A stretch of DNA of 56,751 bases, taken from IMG/VR virus record IMGVR_UViG_3300023174_000197, positions 1-56,751 of that record, one strand, 5' to 3'. A program made the translations under genes and the position numbers. Source of the DNA: a virus. Below the pieces are notes generated by a model that was given only the letters and a program-made list of their open reading frames with translations, did not search any database and was not told where the DNA came from. This document shows, piece by piece, positions 20,289 through 46,062 of the stretch; within the stretch, counting starts at the first letter, position 1, and each line of letters opens with the position of its first letter.

Positions 20289-20678
20289 TTAAGCCTTTTT
20301 GTTGGATGCTACATGAGGCTCTGCAGCTTTGGCCTGCTTGGCCTGCTCACGTGCCATTTTGCGAGCACCAGCTGCTTGCTGTTTGGCTGCATCTTTGGCC
20401 TGCTTGGCCTGCAGCTTCAACTGCTGGCGTTGCAGTTTATCAGCAGCTTGCAGCTCCTGCTTGGCCTGCTTGTTGGCCTGCTGTGCATGTGCAATGCTGT
20501 TGTTGATGTCTGCAGCACGAGCAGCTACATCAACACCATTGTGAACAGCCAGTGCCACCAAAATGGACATCAGCTGCTTTTCAGTTACATTGTGTTGAGC
20601 GCGCAAGTCTTGAATGATTTGCTTGTCTTCAGGAGTTACAAGGCAGGCATTGAACTTGGAGTTGGCGTTGGTATTCAT
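20289..20678 (-). CDS. Ala/Lys/Gln-rich coiled-coil protein, 129 aa
   Basis: N-terminal 55 residues look globular (LVTPEDKQIIQDLRAQHNV); the rest is a basic helix built of QAKQ/QAKDAAKQQ-type repeats, like histone-H1-like or scaffold proteins. It might bind DNA or act in assembly; not assignable. CAAATA is 3 nt before the ATG. Its own terminator suggests high expression. Confidence 0.75.
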   Translation of the reverse strand: MNTNANSKFNACLVTPEDKQIIQDLRAQHNVTEKQLMSILVALAVHNGVDVAARAADINNSIAHAQQANKQAKQELQAADKLQRQQLKLQAKQAKDAAKQQAAGARKMAREQAKQAKAAEPHVASNKKA

Positions 20679-20760
20679 ATGTATTTGAGTTGGGTTTGTT
20701 TTGCTGTTTGTATTACACTATAGGCTAAAAATTGAATGATGCAACTTTTTTCCTAAAATT

Positions 20761-23978: not shown

Positions 23979-24006
23979 AATATAGATGTGTTTAAGATAT
24001 GTTCAA
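23979..24006 (-). promoter_or_regulatory. leaderless -35/-10 promoter
   Basis: TTGAAC, 16 bp, TATATT, 6 nt, ATG 23972; overlaps the end of 23992-24567. Confidence 0.68.
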
Positions 24007-24567
24007 CTGTTCCGATACTTTTTTTCCATTGGCATCTGTATCATCAATGTAATGTTGTACATGCAGCAATGCATCTGGCACTGCATTGAAATTATCATCA
24101 TGATACAAATCAGTGAACCATTTGCGTTGCTGCAGCATGCGATGATGAGAGTACAAGTAAATGTTGGCCAGCTTGGCGTAACGTGCAGCATCAATGTCTA
24201 GCTTGTAATCCTTGATGCATTGCAATGCTCTGGCTTCACAATCGTGCTCCAGTGCAATGCATTTGTGCATGCTGTCTGCAGCTGATTCAGCACAAGCTTC
24301 CATGCCACTCAACCAATGTGTAAATGCCATGGAGCCACCTGCAACATAATCATTCCACTGTTTGCAGTTCTCAATGCATTGCTGCATGTGACAATATTCA
24401 TGCAGCAATATTTCAAAGCCTTGTACATTGTTGTACGCAACCACCAGCTCTTTGCCATTGAACCATCCTCCTGTTCTCTTGACAGTGCGCTTGTTGAGCA
24501 GCTTGACAGAGACTCCAGCCTGCATTGCTTCTGAGACTACTTTGGCAATAAATGCTTGACGATTCAT
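23992..24567 (-). CDS. HExxH zinc metallopeptidase-like protein
   Basis: 191 residues. FEILLHEYCHMQQC places a HExxH zinc motif at His56-Glu57-His60. The segment before it (ELVVAYNNVQGFEILL) fits a zincin beta strand and helix. A third ligand could be Glu89 or another acidic residue in MEACAESAAD. Family not known; a small intracellular peptidase is the plain reading. A -35/-10 pair lies 5 nt before the ATG, inside the end of the RadA-like gene. Confidence 0.7.
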   Translation of the reverse strand: MNRQAFIAKVVSEAMQAGVSVKLLNKRTVKRTGGWFNGKELVVAYNNVQGFEILLHEYCHMQQCIENCKQWNDYVAGGSMAFTHWLSGMEACAESAADSMHKCIALEHDCEARALQCIKDYKLDIDAARYAKLANIYLYSHHRMLQQRKWFTDLYHDDNFNAVPDALLHVQHYIDDTDANGKKVSEQLNIS

Positions 24568-25900: not shown

Positions 25901-26527
25901 TTACTTGCGTTCATCATAATTGAGATTGATCACCTTGAAGCTACCGTTCTTGTGCTTGATGACAACACCTTCAAATGCTTTACCATTTACTTCAGTCATT
26001 ACTTCAGCATACTCCTTGATAAGCTCTGGAGTTAGCGTAGCAGTTTCAAGCAAGTCAACTGCTGGCACACCAATTATGCCGCAAACGTTTTGATAATAAT
26101 GCTTGCTGCCTTTGTTTTCATACTCAAGAGTATCAAGATTGAAGATGCTATAAGCAGCAAAGCTAAGAGGTAGTTTGCTATGTGGATTAACCCCATGATG
26201 CTGAATACCACTACCATGCACCTCACCACGCAGAGCTAATGAAACATTATTAGATTCGCAATATGCTTGCAGCTTCTCAAGGATGTTGTACTTTGCTTCA
26301 GCTCTGGTATAATTGTTCAGGCATTCCTTTTTAAGTTCAAGAGAGCGAGAACAAACACCGGTTTGCCATTCATTTGTTTCTGGATCTTTGCGGCAGTAAT
26401 AAGTGGCGCTGGAGTTGTGTACTAGCATTCCGTTAGCGAAGAAGTTGTGATTCTTTGCTGTCTCAATATCGTAAAGCTTGGAATCGCATGAGACTTTACG
26501 GATGCTTTTAATTTTTACTTTTTGCAT
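25901..26527 (-). CDS. C-half of split RNA ligase: C-intein plus C-extein
   Basis: 208 residues from ATG 26527. Residues 1-38 are a typical C-intein: YDIETAKNHNFFANG (block F) and GMLVHN (block G, terminal Asn38). The extein starts with Ser39 (SSATYYCRKD), which continues the ligase motif KVDG-SSATYY. The C-extein (170 aa) holds further nucleotidyltransferase motifs: LRGEVHGSGIQ (motif III type) and FEGVVIKHKNGSFKV (motif IV/V type). Trans-splicing with 27656-28456 would give a ligase of about 336 residues. Overlaps the endonuclease gene by 20 bp. A TTG five codons upstream is a less likely start. Confidence 0.92.
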   Translation of the reverse strand: MQKVKIKSIRKVSCDSKLYDIETAKNHNFFANGMLVHNSSATYYCRKDPETNEWQTGVCSRSLELKKECLNNYTRAEAKYNILEKLQAYCESNNVSLALRGEVHGSGIQHHGVNPHSKLPLSFAAYSIFNLDTLEYENKGSKHYYQNVCGIIGVPAVDLLETATLTPELIKEYAEVMTEVNGKAFEGVVIKHKNGSFKVINLNYDERK

Positions 26528-27608
26528 AAATTTTTGTTTCAATCAGCTTGATTAGTTGTTCGTTTGTGAGGTTGTTTATTTCTTTCTCCCACACAACAAT
26601 TATAGTGTATTTCCTTTCAAGAGCAACTGCTTTTTTGTGTTCATCCTTTTTCCATCTTTCTGCTGCAGTAGTCTGTCCAGATGGGTAATTGAGGACATCT
26701 CCAGCAATGTATAGTGCTGGATTAGCATGCCAGTAATCACCATTAAATTCAATCAACAAATTGAGTTCAGGAATGAATAAGTCATAGAAGTATCTACGCT
26801 TTTTTCCTTCTTCTTCATACTTGATAATAAATTGTCTTGTATGTGTAATTTGCAGAGCAGCAAGCGCTTCAGATATTGCTGCTTCGCCTTTTGATTCTCT
26901 ATAGCCTTTAATGGATTTTGTTCTTGATGCATCTGAATTGATTGACTTGTCAAGCCATTCTTGTCTTTCTTGTTCTGATTTATTAGCCCACACTTCCGAA
27001 TTACGCAAGCTCTTCCACTCACCACAACTCATCCCATACCGCTGCTGATAACTCTCTTCCTTTATTTTTTTAAAATCATGTCGTTTGAAAAAGTTATCAA
27101 CTCCAAACTCTGTTAAACATTTCTCAGCTTTCTTCTTTTTTGTTGCAGCAGCTTGTGAGATGTTTGTTTCTACACCATACTTGTCCTTGAGTGTAGCATG
27201 CAGCTTAGTTTTAAAAGCATCTGTTTTTGCAGCTTGCGAAATGCTACGCATTGGTATTTCATAATACTCAAGCAGCTTGTTTGTTTGATCATAATTGATT
27301 TCAAACTCTTGCATCAAATCTGGTAAGCTTTTTTGGTTAATTACATACTGCTTTTGCATAAATTCTTTTGTTGCAAAAGGATGTTGTAATAAGATTTTAT
27401 TAATCTTTTCTTCTTGAGATGTAATGCAGTGTGAACCAATTGGCTTACTTTGTATTTGATAGTGAGCGAATAGAGCTTTGAGTTTGTGTGAATGTATATC
27501 TTGCTCTCTGCAGATGCAAGCACAGCTTTTATTGTGAAATATATACTCCTTATCAATAAACTCTTTTGTGAGATGCGGGTAATTCGATAGTATATTAGAA
27601 ATGCTCAT
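26508..27608 (-). CDS. homing endonuclease, Vsr-like (EDxHD-type), inside fractured gene
   Basis: 366 residues. The C-terminal 110 residues have the Vsr-like nuclease pattern: FYDLFIPELNLLIEFNGDYW with WHANP, then a Lys/His helix and YTIIVVWEKEINN. The N-terminal half has repeated DNA-binding-like units (HPFATKEFMQKQYVINQKSL type). This family is known to sit between the halves of genes broken by split inteins, where it spreads the arrangement. CTAAATA lies 5 nt before ATG 27608, inside a hairpin (27603-27631). Confidence 0.85.
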   Translation of the reverse strand: MSISNILSNYPHLTKEFIDKEYIFHNKSCACICREQDIHSHKLKALFAHYQIQSKPIGSHCITSQEEKINKILLQHPFATKEFMQKQYVINQKSLPDLMQEFEINYDQTNKLLEYYEIPMRSISQAAKTDAFKTKLHATLKDKYGVETNISQAAATKKKKAEKCLTEFGVDNFFKRHDFKKIKEESYQQRYGMSCGEWKSLRNSEVWANKSEQERQEWLDKSINSDASRTKSIKGYRESKGEAAISEALAALQITHTRQFIIKYEEEGKKRRYFYDLFIPELNLLIEFNGDYWHANPALYIAGDVLNYPSGQTTAAERWKKDEHKKAVALERKYTIIVVWEKEINNLTNEQLIKLIETKIYAKSKN

Positions 27609-27631
27609 ATAGATATTTAGTCTATATGAGC
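27603..27631 (-). promoter_or_regulatory. hairpin hiding the endonuclease start, late promoter in loop
   Basis: Perfect 11-bp inverted repeat (GCTCATATAGA / TCTATATGAGC) with a 7-nt loop CTAAATA, the late-promoter core. The right arm contains the ATG at 27608. Read-through RNA from upstream would fold and bury the start; RNA begun at the late box would lack the left arm and stay open. T4 I-TevI is controlled by this logic. Confidence 0.75.
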
Positions 27632-27655
27632 CAAAAGATTGGTGTTTTCTATTTT

Positions 27656-28456
27656 TTATTTCACAGTTACCTCATCACCTACACACAACTCATCAGTACG
27701 CCTGTAGCATGCAAGTTCAGGCAGCCACACCCTATGATTTTCTGTAAGAGTAATGACTCGTCCATCATCAAGCTCAACTTCATACCACTGCTTACCATCA
27801 TTATCTTTAGCAGATGTGGAAAGGATAGGCTGATATTCCAGCTCACCTGTATTTGTATCAAGCGTTGCAACATGAGTTCCAACCATGTTATATTCAACCA
27901 ACTCTGCAATAGTAAGCTCACCCATCTCTGTAATCACTTTAGTGTTTCCCTTGAGACAGCCATCCACCTTAAGAGTAACATCAACAGTCTCACCAAATGG
28001 AAGAACATCAGTAAGATTCTGGTAGCGTTCTTCATCAGTCTTATTCAAGCCATACATCAGCGGACATTTAGCATCCAGAGTTTGTGGCATTGGAACTTCA
28101 TACTTAGTAACACCAATGAGATCAGACACTTCTTTACCGATATTGTCGCTGTAATTACCAAATTGATCTGCAAAGAAGAAAGAATCGATGATATCATATG
28201 GAGACATCACAATGCCAAAGCTATATACACCGCGGAGCTTCATAGCCTTGACACGATTGCCGCGCTTCTTGAACATTTCAGCCCAAGGTTCATCAGGCAG
28301 CACAGTATCAGGCTGAATGAGCACAACAGCATCTCCAACCTTGTATTTGTCCTTCTCAACGATGCAGGTATAACCCAGCACCTTGGCAAGGTCTAATTTG
28401 TCAGCATTTGGATGAGGTTTGATTTCAGAGATGAGTTCGATAGACGCTAATTTCAT
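27656..28456 (-). CDS. N-half of split RNA ligase: N-extein plus N-intein
   Basis: 266 residues. Residues 1-85 form an OB-like domain (HPNADKLDLAKVLGYTC, KVGDAVVLIQPDTVLP, KAMKLRGVYSFGIVM) as in DRB0094-type RNA ligases. The adenylation motif TLKVDG gives catalytic Lys163 and ends at Gly166. Cys167 starts the intein: CLKGNTKVITEMGELTIAEL (block A) and ITLTENHRVW (block B). The frame stops after 100 intein residues, with no endonuclease domain or C-terminal blocks, so it is a true split N-intein. Promoter: TTACAA, 16 bp, TATAAT, 6 nt to ATG. Confidence 0.93.
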   Translation of the reverse strand: MKLASIELISEIKPHPNADKLDLAKVLGYTCIVEKDKYKVGDAVVLIQPDTVLPDEPWAEMFKKRGNRVKAMKLRGVYSFGIVMSPYDIIDSFFFADQFGNYSDNIGKEVSDLIGVTKYEVPMPQTLDAKCPLMYGLNKTDEERYQNLTDVLPFGETVDVTLKVDGCLKGNTKVITEMGELTIAELVEYNMVGTHVATLDTNTGELEYQPILSTSAKDNDGKQWYEVELDDGRVITLTENHRVWLPELACYRRTDELCVGDEVTVK

Positions 28457-39735: not shown

Positions 39736-41343
39736 TTAGACGTATTGAGCAAGGTTGTTGCGAACTTCTTGCAATGTCCAGTCTTTGATTAGTTGACCAT
39801 TTTCAAACACTTTGACGAATTCGCAATTGTTGACTTCCTCCCAAGTAGCTTGATCTTTGAGATAAAACTCACCATTTGCATCTTTGAATACAGCAGTAAG
39901 GCCTTTGGCGCTCTTCTTGAACTCAGCACCTTTGGGTGACTTGAAGATCTCTTTGTCAACGCCATTGATCTTAGCATATGTAGCCTTGACTGCATATCCA
40001 TCAGTATCACGAGTTGCATACTGGTAAGTGAAGCTGCCAATGCCAAACACAATGTTGGTGCTGGCAAAGCCTTTGCGCTTGAGACCTTCACAGATCTGCT
40101 GAGCACGCTCCAAAGTGATGCTGTCGCCATAGATCAATCCTACATGTGGATCAAGCTCTTTGAAGCCTTTGTCATTGACTTTGCCACCAAAGACTTCCCA
40201 CAGACACTCAATGGAGCCTTTGACTTCTGCTTCAGAGAGTTTTTCACCAAGAATAAAACCATGCATATCTGTTTCAACTTTGTAGAAGTCGTTTGTTCCA
40301 GTGACCCGAACAACATCATGCTCCGGTGCAAAGCTGATATATGTTTTGTCTCCACTTTCTTCAAAATGGCTGATATGAATAGTATCATAATCGTAACCAA
40401 CAACCACTTTGACTGGATCTCCAGTATCAGGACGGAAGACTACCTTGCCATCACGATTCATGATTTCACTCTTGAGCTCACGAGCAATGTTGGTAATGGT
40501 GTTAAAATAGTCCCAAGTGTCTGCCACCACGCTGACGATACCTTTAGGATACACCTCATTGATCAATCGACGGAAGGTACCAATCTCATCATCAGCACCG
40601 CCTGCTGCCATTACTGAGTGCTCAGTTGCAGCAACGCTGCCACCAACAAGCTCCTTGGTTGCATCAGCATTGTAGTATTGCTCCAAGAAGTCAATGGCAG
40701 GAATGGTATCAGTGCCAGTGAAGCTGAACAAGTGAGCAGCACCACTCATGCAAGCTGCCTCCATCCCAAACATGCCACGGAAGCTGAAGTCATGACCCTG
40801 CCATGCAACGAAATCAGTATTGCCAACAGTCTCTGCAGCATATTTGGTCAACAACTTCTTGTATTGATGAGCAGTAGTAGCACTGGTGCACATGCCCCAA
40901 ACGCTGGTAGAGAGAATGGTCTCCAAGTAGTTGGTGAACCAACCAAAGCGTTCATCAGTATTCCAAAGCACCAAACTTGGCACCTTGAGAGCATGTTCAC
41001 TGCCTTCTGGCAGAGCCAAGATCACAACAGGCAAATGGCCCAATGCATGCAAGTCACGAATGTGCTGTTCACCAACATCATTAGGACCAAGATAGTTGTT
41101 GATGCGATTGCTGAACTTGGCAATTACTTCATCAATGGGCTTGTGAAAGAAGTTTTCATTCCATTGCTTGATGAGATATTCTTTGACGAAGTATTGCAGG
41201 CCAGCAAAGACAACTTTGTTGGTATTAGGACGGCGAGTGCTTCGAGCAGTCAGATTGCTGAAGATGATTTCAGTGTTGTCGGGGTATTGGCGGCGATGGT
41301 CGCACTTGTAGCCATCGATGAGCGTTGCGGGGTTTGTAATCAT
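39736..41343 (-). CDS. nicotinamide phosphoribosyltransferase-like (NAMPT/Namat)
   Basis: 535 residues, near the NAMPT length of about 490 plus an end extension. The phosphohistidine site is His242 in AATEHSVM, and RPDTGDP lies at 304-310; GHDFSFRG and GTDTIPA are also typical. It would join nicotinamide with PRPP to give NMN, or, as in phage NARP1, with ADP-ribose pyrophosphate to give NAD+. It is downstream of Prs-like and NDT-like genes and has its own leaderless promoter and a strong terminator. Confidence 0.93.
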   Translation of the reverse strand: MITNPATLIDGYKCDHRRQYPDNTEIIFSNLTARSTRRPNTNKVVFAGLQYFVKEYLIKQWNENFFHKPIDEVIAKFSNRINNYLGPNDVGEQHIRDLHALGHLPVVILALPEGSEHALKVPSLVLWNTDERFGWFTNYLETILSTSVWGMCTSATTAHQYKKLLTKYAAETVGNTDFVAWQGHDFSFRGMFGMEAACMSGAAHLFSFTGTDTIPAIDFLEQYYNADATKELVGGSVAATEHSVMAAGGADDEIGTFRRLINEVYPKGIVSVVADTWDYFNTITNIARELKSEIMNRDGKVVFRPDTGDPVKVVVGYDYDTIHISHFEESGDKTYISFAPEHDVVRVTGTNDFYKVETDMHGFILGEKLSEAEVKGSIECLWEVFGGKVNDKGFKELDPHVGLIYGDSITLERAQQICEGLKRKGFASTNIVFGIGSFTYQYATRDTDGYAVKATYAKINGVDKEIFKSPKGAEFKKSAKGLTAVFKDANGEFYLKDQATWEEVNNCEFVKVFENGQLIKDWTLQEVRNNLAQYV

Positions 41344-43421: not shown

Positions 43422-44576
43422 TTACTCTATTTCCTTTGACTCTGCAACTTCAAAATCATCTTTGCAGAGACTTTGTAGTACATGCTTCTTGAGTTGACTT
43501 GCATCATATCCCAAGTCGGCATATTTGAATGCAAATTTTATGACGTCAGTGCCTTTGTAAAATTGCTGCAAGTAAAGAGCAAATTCTTTGCGTGACTCTT
43601 TTGGAGCATCTGCAACAACCAATGCAACCTTGAGAACAGTTTCTTGTACTTTGCAGTTGATTGCATCAACGTATGCATCAAACTCAGGAATGAGTTCTTC
43701 TGGTAGTGCTTTGCGAATCTCTTCTTGTTCACCTTGCTGCACAGCTTCAAGCACACGCTTGAAAGTGAACTGAGCAATGATGCGATGCAAACGCATGTAG
43801 TCTTCAGATTTGAACTTGAAGATGCTTCCATCAGAGAAATGTACTACAAAGCCTTCGAATTCAGTGCCCTTGGTAGCATTGAGCCACATGAGCATGTCTT
43901 CTTGAGAATTGAATTGACGATTGTGTGAATAGTATGGCCAATTAGGAATTGCATTACCACCATAGAAGCATTCACCAGTTTGTCGATTGCGCTGACCTAA
44001 AAGAATTAGTTTGCTTCGATCATACTTCACAACAATCTGGCAGATTGGATCAATGATTTCAAACAAGTAGGTATTCTTTGGGTGCAATACTGCTTTTTCA
44101 GACACCACCAGTTCATCAAAGATCTTCTGACCTACAACACCAATATCAGAGTTGAGAGAGCCGCGAGTAGTGATGTGCCATTTGTCATGCCAATGAAAGC
44201 AAATGCCAAGCGAACCATCTTCTTTATCAAAAATTTGCTTGATAGATGCACCAGCAGCAGGATAATGAATACCACCTTCACCATAGTTGAAGAACTTGGA
44301 GAAAGGAAGAGCTACAATGCGATAAGGAGAAAGAGTATCTGCAGCATCAAAGATGATGCCACGGCAATGTTGCACCAGAGGATCCCAAGCAACAGCATTA
44401 TGCTCGTACTGATAGGTCTTGGAGTAAGTAACAAGCACGAGACCTTGACGTTCACCTTGACCAACATTGACAATGAGCTCTCCTTTTTCGATATGAGGTT
44501 GCAAGGCATTCCACAATGCTAATCCATCAATTGAATTGGTTTCGTAGTTCCAGAAATGTTGTGCTAAGTAATTCAT
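43422..44576 (-). CDS. rnlA: RNA ligase 1 (T4 RnlA-like)
   Basis: 384 residues (T4 Rnl1 is 374). Adenylation motif KEDGSL with Lys118; PFSKFFNYGE just before it is typical of Rnl1; EGFVVHFSDGSIFKFKSEDY near 255-275 covers motifs IV and V. The C-terminal helical domain (KVQETVLKVALVVADAPKES) fits the tRNA-specific domain of T4 Rnl1. Repairs cut tRNA anticodon loops with an end-healing partner, which is not obvious in this window. Confidence 0.92.
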   Translation of the reverse strand: MNYLAQHFWNYETNSIDGLALWNALQPHIEKGELIVNVGQGERQGLVLVTYSKTYQYEHNAVAWDPLVQHCRGIIFDAADTLSPYRIVALPFSKFFNYGEGGIHYPAAGASIKQIFDKEDGSLGICFHWHDKWHITTRGSLNSDIGVVGQKIFDELVVSEKAVLHPKNTYLFEIIDPICQIVVKYDRSKLILLGQRNRQTGECFYGGNAIPNWPYYSHNRQFNSQEDMLMWLNATKGTEFEGFVVHFSDGSIFKFKSEDYMRLHRIIAQFTFKRVLEAVQQGEQEEIRKALPEELIPEFDAYVDAINCKVQETVLKVALVVADAPKESRKEFALYLQQFYKGTDVIKFAFKYADLGYDASQLKKHVLQSLCKDDFEVAESKEIE

Positions 44577-44964: not shown

Positions 44965-46062
44965 TTATTCATACGTTCTAATTGCTGTCACAAAAGGAAA
45001 GCGGGGGATGTTGTCTGGCGTTAAGTTGAAGAATTTAACTGTAGCTGGTTTGCCAATGAGATCAACTTTTTCTTTGAGAAGTTGTGCACAATATTCACGA
45101 GAGCCTTTGATGTTACTGTTAAAACGAACACCTTGCTCATTTGCAAACGTCATGGCTCCTGCACCACCTGCACGATTGCCTTCACCTTCAATGACGTCAA
45201 GAATAATGTACTCCTTGTCTTGAAATTCTTTGCGCTTCAAAAGGTTTTTGCTGCGCTTGTTCTCATAGGGTTTATCCAGGCGAACCATTTGACCCTCATA
45301 ACCTTCATTGATGTACTTCTCATACAACTCATCCAAATAATGTCGCTGCTGTACAAATTCAGTTGGCACTTCTTGAATGCATCCTCCAACTCTATCAACA
45401 ACTTCTTGCACAATGTGATAAAAGCGCTTGCTGAAAGCTTTGCTCGCATCAACTGCATCATAAATCCAATACTGAATGCTAGCTGCAGAGTCAGCTAAAT
45501 CTTGAGCAGTAGGCTTGGTCTTTTTAACAAGAGAACAAATAGCATTGAAGTCATTGCTGAACTTGTCGCAATACAATTCACCATCCAAAACTAAATTTGG
45601 ATTGGATGCAAAGATGTGTTCTAATGCTTGTTCAATGTGAGGCACACTTGCAAACTTCTTACCATTGCGGCTCCACAAACCATCTTTGCGAGCAATGCAT
45701 CGAATACCATCCAGCTTGAATTGCGAATAAACAGGGAATTGAATTTCATTAGCATAGTCCTCGTACTTCTTGGCCAACATGGGCTCAGTGAACGTCATGT
45801 TGTCAATGTCATTGATGTTTTCAAAACATCCACCATCTTTCTTTTTCTTCCACAGAGCCTTGGCATCTTTCAAAGCCTGCTCTTGCGCTGTGGTTGCATT
45901 AGCTTTGCCTTCGTTTTTAGGTTTGCAATGCGTTAGCTCAGTAGTCTGCTGCTTGCCATCAACTTGGCCAAAGTGAGTGCAGTAAGCATCACCAATGATT
46001 TCAATGGTCCAGTTTTGAACAGCACCAGTTGAAGTGCGAGAGTAGAGAGTGGGTAGTTTCAT
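44965..46062 (-). CDS. ATP-dependent DNA ligase
   Basis: 365 residues. Residues 1-85 form a small beta domain (NWTIEIIGDAYCTHFGQVDG, KANATTAQEQALKDAKALWK) found in front of many phage ligases. Motif I FKLDGIR has Lys116, motif III near 155 is LVLDGELYC, motif IV GYEGQMVRLD, motif V LLKRKEF. It seals DNA nicks in replication and repair. Confidence 0.94.
   Translation of the reverse strand: MKLPTLYSRTSTGAVQNWTIEIIGDAYCTHFGQVDGKQQTTELTHCKPKNEGKANATTAQEQALKDAKALWKKKKDGGCFENINDIDNMTFTEPMLAKKYEDYANEIQFPVYSQFKLDGIRCIARKDGLWSRNGKKFASVPHIEQALEHIFASNPNLVLDGELYCDKFSNDFNAICSLVKKTKPTAQDLADSAASIQYWIYDAVDASKAFSKRFYHIVQEVVDRVGGCIQEVPTEFVQQRHYLDELYEKYINEGYEGQMVRLDKPYENKRSKNLLKRKEFQDKEYIILDVIEGEGNRAGGAGAMTFANEQGVRFNSNIKGSREYCAQLLKEKVDLIGKPATVKFFNLTPDNIPRFPFVTAIRTYE

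What the first reader, a model, noticed from the sequence alone, without database searches (positions are those of the whole stretch)
25901..28456. RNA ligase broken by a split intein inside its catalytic KxDG motif
The N-half ends KVDG then Cys167 of a 100-residue N-intein and stops; the C-half begins with a 38-residue C-intein (NHNFFANG...VHN) and continues SSATYY. Joining gives the ligase motif KVDGSSATYY with Lys163 as nucleophile, so the enzyme is inactive until trans-spliced. Such 'fractured genes' are known for a few phage replication genes; I do not recall one in an RNA ligase. The extein junction G/S and the short C-intein make it a candidate fast splicing pair.
Basis: partly seen in the sequence, partly recalled or inferred. 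Interest (0 to 1): 0.92.

Follow-up and report, generated by a model that had tools for sequence, protein, structure and literature searches.

The report
Phage RNA ligase split by intein
A phage RNA-repair enzyme gene is cut in two right behind its catalytic lysine by a mobile element made of a split self-splicing intein and a DNA-cutting gene; the arrangement is a known type, but the host gene is new, and the same kind of element sits at the same spot in several other ligase families.

Summary
On the minus strand, ORF 28456-27656 is the N-terminal half of an Rnl5 (DRB0094/NgrRnl)-type RNA ligase ending ...KVDG, then a 100-aa N-intein. ORF 26527-25901 is a 38-aa C-intein, then SSATYY... Joining gives a 336-aa ligase. 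An intein-free relative (L001, 75% identical, syntenic) has an uninterrupted ligase exactly at this point, and 80 of 82 IMG/VR relatives checked read straight through KxDG[S/T/Q/M/V]S. Both exteins are under purifying selection (dN/dS 0.19 and 0.16 against L001). IMG/VR and GTDB scans found 11 more split genes and two contiguous inteins at the same KxxG|S/T site, in Rnl1, Rnl2-like, Rnl5 and DNA ligases. Eleven of these inteins, including the window's, form one clade (100/99). Trans-splicing, homing and ligase activity are inferred, not shown. Verdict: real; a known kind of element (Dassa 2009) in a host family for which I found no report; motif I of covalent ligases looks like a recurrent intein site.

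The parts
27959..28456 (-). N-extein: residues 1-166 of an Rnl5-type RNA ligase (OB-fold domain and start of the nucleotidyltransferase domain), ending KVDG
   Evidence: Pfam PF21189 4e-16; NgrRnl 4e-14; TIGR02306 6e-27
27959..27970 (-). motif I KVDG; Lys163 = predicted adenylylated nucleophile (equivalent to NgrRnl K170)
   Evidence: alignment to NgrRnl and 12 continuous phage ligases
27659..27958 (-). N-intein, 100 aa, Cys1, block B TENH; stop codon 27656-27658
   Evidence: NCBIfam intein_Nterm over its cut-off; Pfam Hint/Intein_splicing; NrdJ-1 intein 6e-12 for the concatenated halves
26508..27608 (-). homing endonuclease gene (366 aa): N-terminal helical/DUF7487 region, C-terminal EDxHD/Vsr-like nuclease (D276, E287, H294, D322)
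   Evidence: PHROG 3339 homing endonuclease 1e-12; DUF7487; AlphaFold model matches I-Bth0305I catalytic domain 3r3p (prob 1.00, TMt 0.72) and Vsr 1cw0; invariant residues
26414..26527 (-). C-intein, 38 aa, start ATG inside the 3' end of the endonuclease gene (20-nt overlap), ends HN
   Evidence: NCBIfam intein_Cterm over its cut-off; Pfam Intein_splicing 2.5e-7
25901..26413 (-). C-extein: residues 167-336 of the ligase (SSATYY...EGVVIK...SFKVIN...), stop 25901-25903
   Evidence: Pfam RNA_ligase PF09414 1e-11; NgrRnl
26414..27958 (-). whole mobile insert, 1545 bp, absent from the relative L001
   Evidence: window aligned with L001: ligase and flanks are syntenic at about 80-87% DNA identity and the insert is missing

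Best explanation
A mobile 'fractured gene' element (split class-1 intein plus a free EDxHD-type homing endonuclease gene) has inserted between the codons for Gly166 and Ser167 of a phage Rnl5-type RNA ligase, four residues after the nucleophile Lys163. The two halves are translated separately. The C-half starts inside the end of the endonuclease gene, so it may be translationally coupled to it. The intein halves associate, the intein's Cys1 and the +1 Ser carry out acyl transfer and transesterification, the terminal Asn of the C-intein cyclises, and a scarless 336-aa ligase with restored KVDGSS motif I results. The endonuclease cuts intein-free ligase alleles in co-infecting phages at the conserved motif-I sequence, and repair copies the whole 1545-bp cassette. 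Shown by sequence: the anatomy, the exact junction, intact catalytic residues of intein, ligase and nuclease, an empty allele, and selection on both exteins. Inferred: splicing, homing, coupling, and inactivity of the unspliced halves.
For: Intein N and C models score above curated cut-offs, flush with the junctions. Concatenated intein halves match the natural split intein NrdJ-1 over their whole length, E 6e-12. An uninterrupted, syntenic relative (L001) has the 1545-bp insert precisely absent. 80 of 82 related ligases are continuous at KxDG|xS. dN/dS is 0.19 (N-extein) and 0.16 (C-extein) against L001. The nuclease model matches I-Bth0305I and Vsr. Homologues of this nuclease lie between intein halves of other broken phage genes such as DNA polymerase B, helicase, DnaE and ribonucleotide reductase. 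The same N-intein / nuclease / overlapping C-intein layout occurs in other ligases: L205, L287, L290, L322, L365, L458. No group I or II intron signal in Rfam.
Against: No experimental splicing, cleavage or ligase data. No strong Shine-Dalgarno sequence before the nuclease gene or the C-half. Foldseek E-values for the nuclease are weak (6.7e-3 to 8.8e-3, although probability is 1.00). The nearest intein-free relatives carry Gln, not Ser, at +1, so the +1 Ser must have been present in the invaded allele or brought in by co-conversion. One window record only; no second isolate of this allele was found.
Confidence: 0.9

Rival explanations
1. Genes-in-pieces without splicing: a homing endonuclease split the gene and the two ligase halves work as a non-covalent complex, as reported for a phage ribonucleotide reductase split by a homing endonuclease; the intein remnants are inactive.
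For: Such a non-spliced split nrdA has been reported (Friedrich et al., cited in PMC10448857).
Against: Here full-length intein halves with intact Cys1, block-B TxxH, HN and Ser+1 flank the break, and the break is inside the active-site motif, four residues after the nucleophile. Many independent ligases show the same intein pair.
Confidence: 0.04
2. A decaying contiguous intein: a former in-frame intein-endonuclease that has acquired stops or frameshifts (or assembly errors) and is now a dead ligase gene.
For: A contiguous mini-intein exists at the same site in a related ligase (L443). N- and C-halves are in the same reading frame with 14 stop codons between them.
Against: Each of the three ORFs is intact with its own start. 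The nuclease is in another frame with its own ATG and overlaps the C-half start, and the same three-ORF layout recurs in independent contigs. Both exteins have dN/dS below 0.2 against L001.
Confidence: 0.03
3. The split has been co-opted for regulation: ligase activation is deliberately delayed until both halves are made, for example late in infection or after tRNA damage.
For: The insert sits in the nucleophile motif, so activity plausibly depends on splicing; the C-half start lies inside the endonuclease gene.
Against: Patchy presence and intein-free close relatives (L001, L096, L097, L098, L100, L258) fit a selfish element; no sign of a control function was found.
Confidence: 0.03

Closest known systems
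Fractured genes of Dassa et al. 2009 (Nucleic Acids Res 37:2560; cited in PMC12350094, PMC7090010; paper itself not held)
   Same: Split intein halves on two ORFs, free-standing EDxHD-type endonuclease gene between them, phage metagenome origin; closest solved intein is NrdJ-1, and gp41-1 is related (34% identity)
   Different: Host gene is an RNA ligase and the insertion is inside its catalytic motif I; none of the papers I could read lists a ligase host
Rnl5 RNA ligases (Naegleria gruberi NgrRnl, PDB 5cot; Deinococcus DRB0094)
   Same: OB-fold plus nucleotidyltransferase, KxDG...EGxxxK...SFK motifs; intact relative L001 matches NgrRnl with TM 0.79, E 2e-27
   Different: NgrRnl is one polypeptide; L001 scores 134.7 bits against TIGR02306, below the equivalog cut-off of 151.15
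I-Bth0305I (PDB 3r3p) and Vsr (1cw0): EDxHD endonucleases
   Same: Predicted fold of the C-terminal domain (prob 1.00) and D...E..G...H...D residues
   Different: Low sequence identity (16-19%), different N-terminal part (DUF7487-like)
Split DNA polymerase B of Pseudomonas phage MIJ3 (PMC6892783)
   Same: Phage gene split by intein halves with an endonuclease ORF between
   Different: DNA polymerase host and an HNH endonuclease

Membership tests
Fractured gene with split intein | two ORFs end/start with complementary intein halves carrying splicing residues (Cys1, block-B His, terminal HN, +1 Ser/Thr/Cys) | tested here: met
Fractured gene with split intein | homing endonuclease gene (EDxHD/Vsr type) between the halves | tested here: met
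   PHROG homing endonuclease; fold match to I-Bth0305I and Vsr; invariant D276, E287, H294, D322 in 22 homologues
Fractured gene with split intein | intein-free alleles of the host gene at the same locus | tested here: met
   L001 syntenic and continuous
Fractured gene with split intein | protein trans-splicing occurs | not testable with these tools
   needs co-expression
Fractured gene with split intein | endonuclease cuts the empty site and drives homing | not testable with these tools
   needs cleavage assay or mixed infection
Rnl5 RNA ligase | N-terminal OB-fold domain followed by nucleotidyltransferase domain with motifs I, IV and V | tested here: met
   PF21189 and PF09414 over their cut-offs; motif alignment; fold match of intact relative to NgrRnl
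Rnl5 RNA ligase | NCBIfam equivalog TIGR02306 above cut-off | tested here: not met
   intact relative L001 134.7 bits against 151.15; window halves 94.3 and 29.1. A relative of, not an assigned equivalog of, DRB0094
Rnl5 RNA ligase | nick-sealing RNA ligase activity | not testable with these tools
   needs enzyme assay
Group I or II intron | conserved intron RNA structure | tested here: not met
   no intron family in Rfam, E up to 1

The most novel reading that the evidence does not exclude
One lineage of inteins is specialised for motif I (KxxG|S/T) of covalent nucleotidyltransferases and has moved between non-orthologous enzyme families (Rnl1, Rnl2-like, Rnl5 RNA ligases and an ATP-dependent DNA ligase), so that the catalytic motif itself is the homing address; at least one unrelated split intein (L205/L290) and LAGLIDADG inteins (L264; probably L461/L455) occupy the same site independently.
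Probability: 0.55. Interest if true: 0.75.

Novelty: new member of a known kind. Interest (0 to 1): 0.6.

Why it matters
RNA ligases join the short list of phage genes carried as trans-spliced halves. The break lies four residues after the catalytic lysine, so splicing should act as an on-switch for an RNA-repair enzyme, which makes an easy activity read-out. The recurrence of the site across non-orthologous ligase families allows a direct test of how inteins choose sites: conserved catalytic motifs as homing addresses. It also supplies about a dozen new natural split intein pairs with about 94-104 aa N and 34-43 aa C parts and a KxxG|S/T junction for protein engineering.

Tried and rejected
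(1) Group I/II intron: no Rfam hit apart from a sub-threshold snoRNA match on the other strand. (2) Named phages with a fractured ligase: tblastn of ligase-type N-inteins against 50,697 phage records gave ribonucleotide reductase, UvsW helicase, DnaX, terminase and portal hosts, no ligase. (3) Arthrobacter phage Racecar: its N-half match ran past the junction, but its ligase is continuous. (4) One clade for all 14 ligase inteins: the free tree needs three origins; holding them together is not rejected (AU p 0.33), so the number of origins is open. (5) L307 and L310 match no ligase family model; I call them ligases only by motif (KPDG...EGLVFK; KAHG|SN). The L310 endonuclease looks HNH by eye but has no Pfam hit. 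(6) L455/L461: the N-terminal part lies outside the fetched locus, so the KxxG side was not seen. (7) No paper in the library combines split inteins with an RNA ligase host; Dassa 2009 itself is not held, so its gene list could not be checked.

Full report
What is there. On the minus strand of the window, three ORFs lie head to tail. ORF 28456-27656 (266 aa) has 166 residues of ligase ending TVDVTLKVDG, then 100 residues beginning CLKGNTKVITEMGELTIAEL... and a stop. After 47 bp, ORF 27608-26508 (366 aa) follows in a different frame. ORF 26527-25901 (208 aa) starts with an ATG inside the last codons of the middle ORF (20-nt overlap), has 38 residues ending NHNFFANGMLVHN, and continues SSATYYCRKDPE... 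The first and third ORFs are in the same frame, with 14 stop codons between them. The middle gene was not mentioned.

Identity of the ligase. Pfam finds the PHA02142 OB-fold in the N-half and RNA_ligase PF09414 in the C-half. phmmer aligns the N-half to Naegleria NgrRnl up to its residue 175 and the C-half from about residue 158 on. TIGR02306 (DRB0094 type) is matched at 2-170 and 164-253. This is the Rnl5 arrangement, OB-fold before the nucleotidyltransferase domain, not Rnl2. Lys163 corresponds to NgrRnl K170 (named as the mutated residue in PDB entries 5cou, 6vt0 and 6vte). The joined protein keeps motif I, the EGVVIK and SFKVIN motifs and other residues invariant in a seven-sequence ligase alignment. 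A model of the intact relative L001 matches NgrRnl with TM 0.79.

Identity of the insert. The 100-aa and 38-aa segments pass the curated cut-offs of the NCBIfam intein N- and C-terminal models exactly at the junctions. Concatenated, they match the natural split intein NrdJ-1 (8ubs) over their whole length, E 5.8e-12, and gp41-1 more weakly. Cys1, a TxxH block B, the terminal HN and a +1 Ser are present: a class-1 intein by residues. The middle protein matches PHROG homing endonucleases and DUF7487. Annotated 'VSR endonucleases' of Aeromonas and Tenacibaculum phages match its C-terminal part. Its AlphaFold model (nuclease domain pLDDT above 90) matches Vsr and the I-Bth0305I catalytic domain with probability 1.00, though with weak E-values. 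D276, E287, G290, H294, N296, P297, W319 and D322 are invariant in 22 homologues. Homologues of this nuclease in IMG/VR lie between intein halves of DNA polymerase B, helicase, DnaE, ribonucleotide reductase and other genes. This is the EDxHD endonuclease type of the 'fractured genes' of Dassa et al. 2009.

Is the junction right? A scan of IMG/VR with the joined ligase returned one contig, L001, 75% identical over all 336 residues and uninterrupted: LKVDG|QSATYYCRKD. DNA synteny of about 80-87% runs up to the insertion point on both sides, and exactly 1545 bp are missing. The 36 bp before the site are 33/36 identical between the two, the 36 bp after 25/36. Across 82 relatives fetched by profile and closest-relative scans, 80 show a readable continuous KxDG[S/T/Q/M/V]S. 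The closest ones often have Gln at +1, which could not splice, so the intein-bearing allele either already had Ser or received it by co-conversion. Nei-Gojobori dN/dS against L001 is 0.19 for the N-extein and 0.16 for the C-extein, so both halves have been kept functional on balance. This pair does not date the insertion.

Is it unique? No. Pattern scans for the C-intein block followed by Ser/Thr (in IMG/VR; in GTDB genomes), then search for the upstream N-half, found the same break, KxxG|Cys...Asn|Ser/Thr, in eleven further split genes. Rnl5: L287, L458, L459. T4 Rnl1 type: L289, L322, L431. phrog_548 (Rnl2-like): L205, L290. ATP-dependent DNA ligase: L365. By motif only: L307, L310. An endonuclease ORF lies between the halves in most; the C-half start overlaps its 3' end by 8-65 nt in those on the same strand (coordinates). 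It is on the opposite strand in L431. No ORF large enough for an endonuclease was seen between the halves in L289, L307 and L459. Contiguous inteins also occupy the site: a mini-intein in an Rnl5 ligase (L443) and a LAGLIDADG intein in a T4 Rnl2-type ligase (L264). LAGLIDADG-type inteins in two actinobacterial RNA ligases (L455, L461) probably do too, but only their C-terminal side was seen. L458 and L459 are contigs of genome bins and may be misbinned phages.

History. In a tree of 39 inteins (142 columns), eleven ligase inteins from Rnl1, Rnl2-like, Rnl5 and DNA ligases, with the contiguous L443 nested among the split ones, form one clade with 100/99 support. It persists (SH-aLRT 96) when 28 contiguous inteins of other genes are added. 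L205/L290 and L264 fall elsewhere, but one clade for all 14 is not rejected (AU p 0.33). The sample was collected with a C-intein pattern, so non-ligase members of the clade could have been missed. The most economical reading is that one intein lineage has moved between ligase families by using their one shared motif, and that other inteins have reached the same site independently.

Mechanism. Shown: anatomy, junction, residues, empty allele, selection, recurrence. Inferred: trans-splicing to an active ligase, homing by the endonuclease, translational coupling of the C-half, and inactivity of unspliced halves. The claim of a 'fast splicing pair' has no support either way.

Novelty. The kind is known. 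No paper found in the library describes an RNA ligase host, and no named phage record showed one. Dassa 2009 itself was not available, so the novelty of the host is probable, not proved.

Noticed in passing
window 43422-44576 and 44965-46062 (-): The same phage carries a second RNA ligase (T4 Rnl1 type, phrog_562) and a DNA ligase (phrog_114); both are continuous, not intein-broken.
   Followed up: partly
window 39736-41343 (-): Nicotinamide phosphoribosyltransferase gene (phrog_448, 2e-190), an NAD-synthesis gene in the same phage.
   Followed up: no
L431 5287-6189 (+): In this fractured Rnl1 ligase the endonuclease gene lies on the strand opposite to both ligase halves.
   Followed up: partly
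L038: A DnaE gene piece with a C-intein at its start and an N-intein at its end: the gene appears broken at several sites.
   Followed up: no
L468 (Klebsiella phage KP13-7, OP617745 29846-36154): nrdA annotated in separate pieces, with at least two split-intein sites and different endonuclease ORFs between; most pieces are annotated as hypothetical.
   Followed up: no
L264, L455, L461: LAGLIDADG-type inteins in RNA ligases of a phage contig and of the actinobacteria Plantactinospora mayteni and Catenuloplanes japonicus.
   Followed up: partly
L001 1733-1769, 2116-2150 and window reverse-complement coordinates about 20651-20687 and 23983-24086: Short near-identical sequences recur between genes in L001 and in the window; possibly repeated leader or promoter elements.
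   Followed up: no
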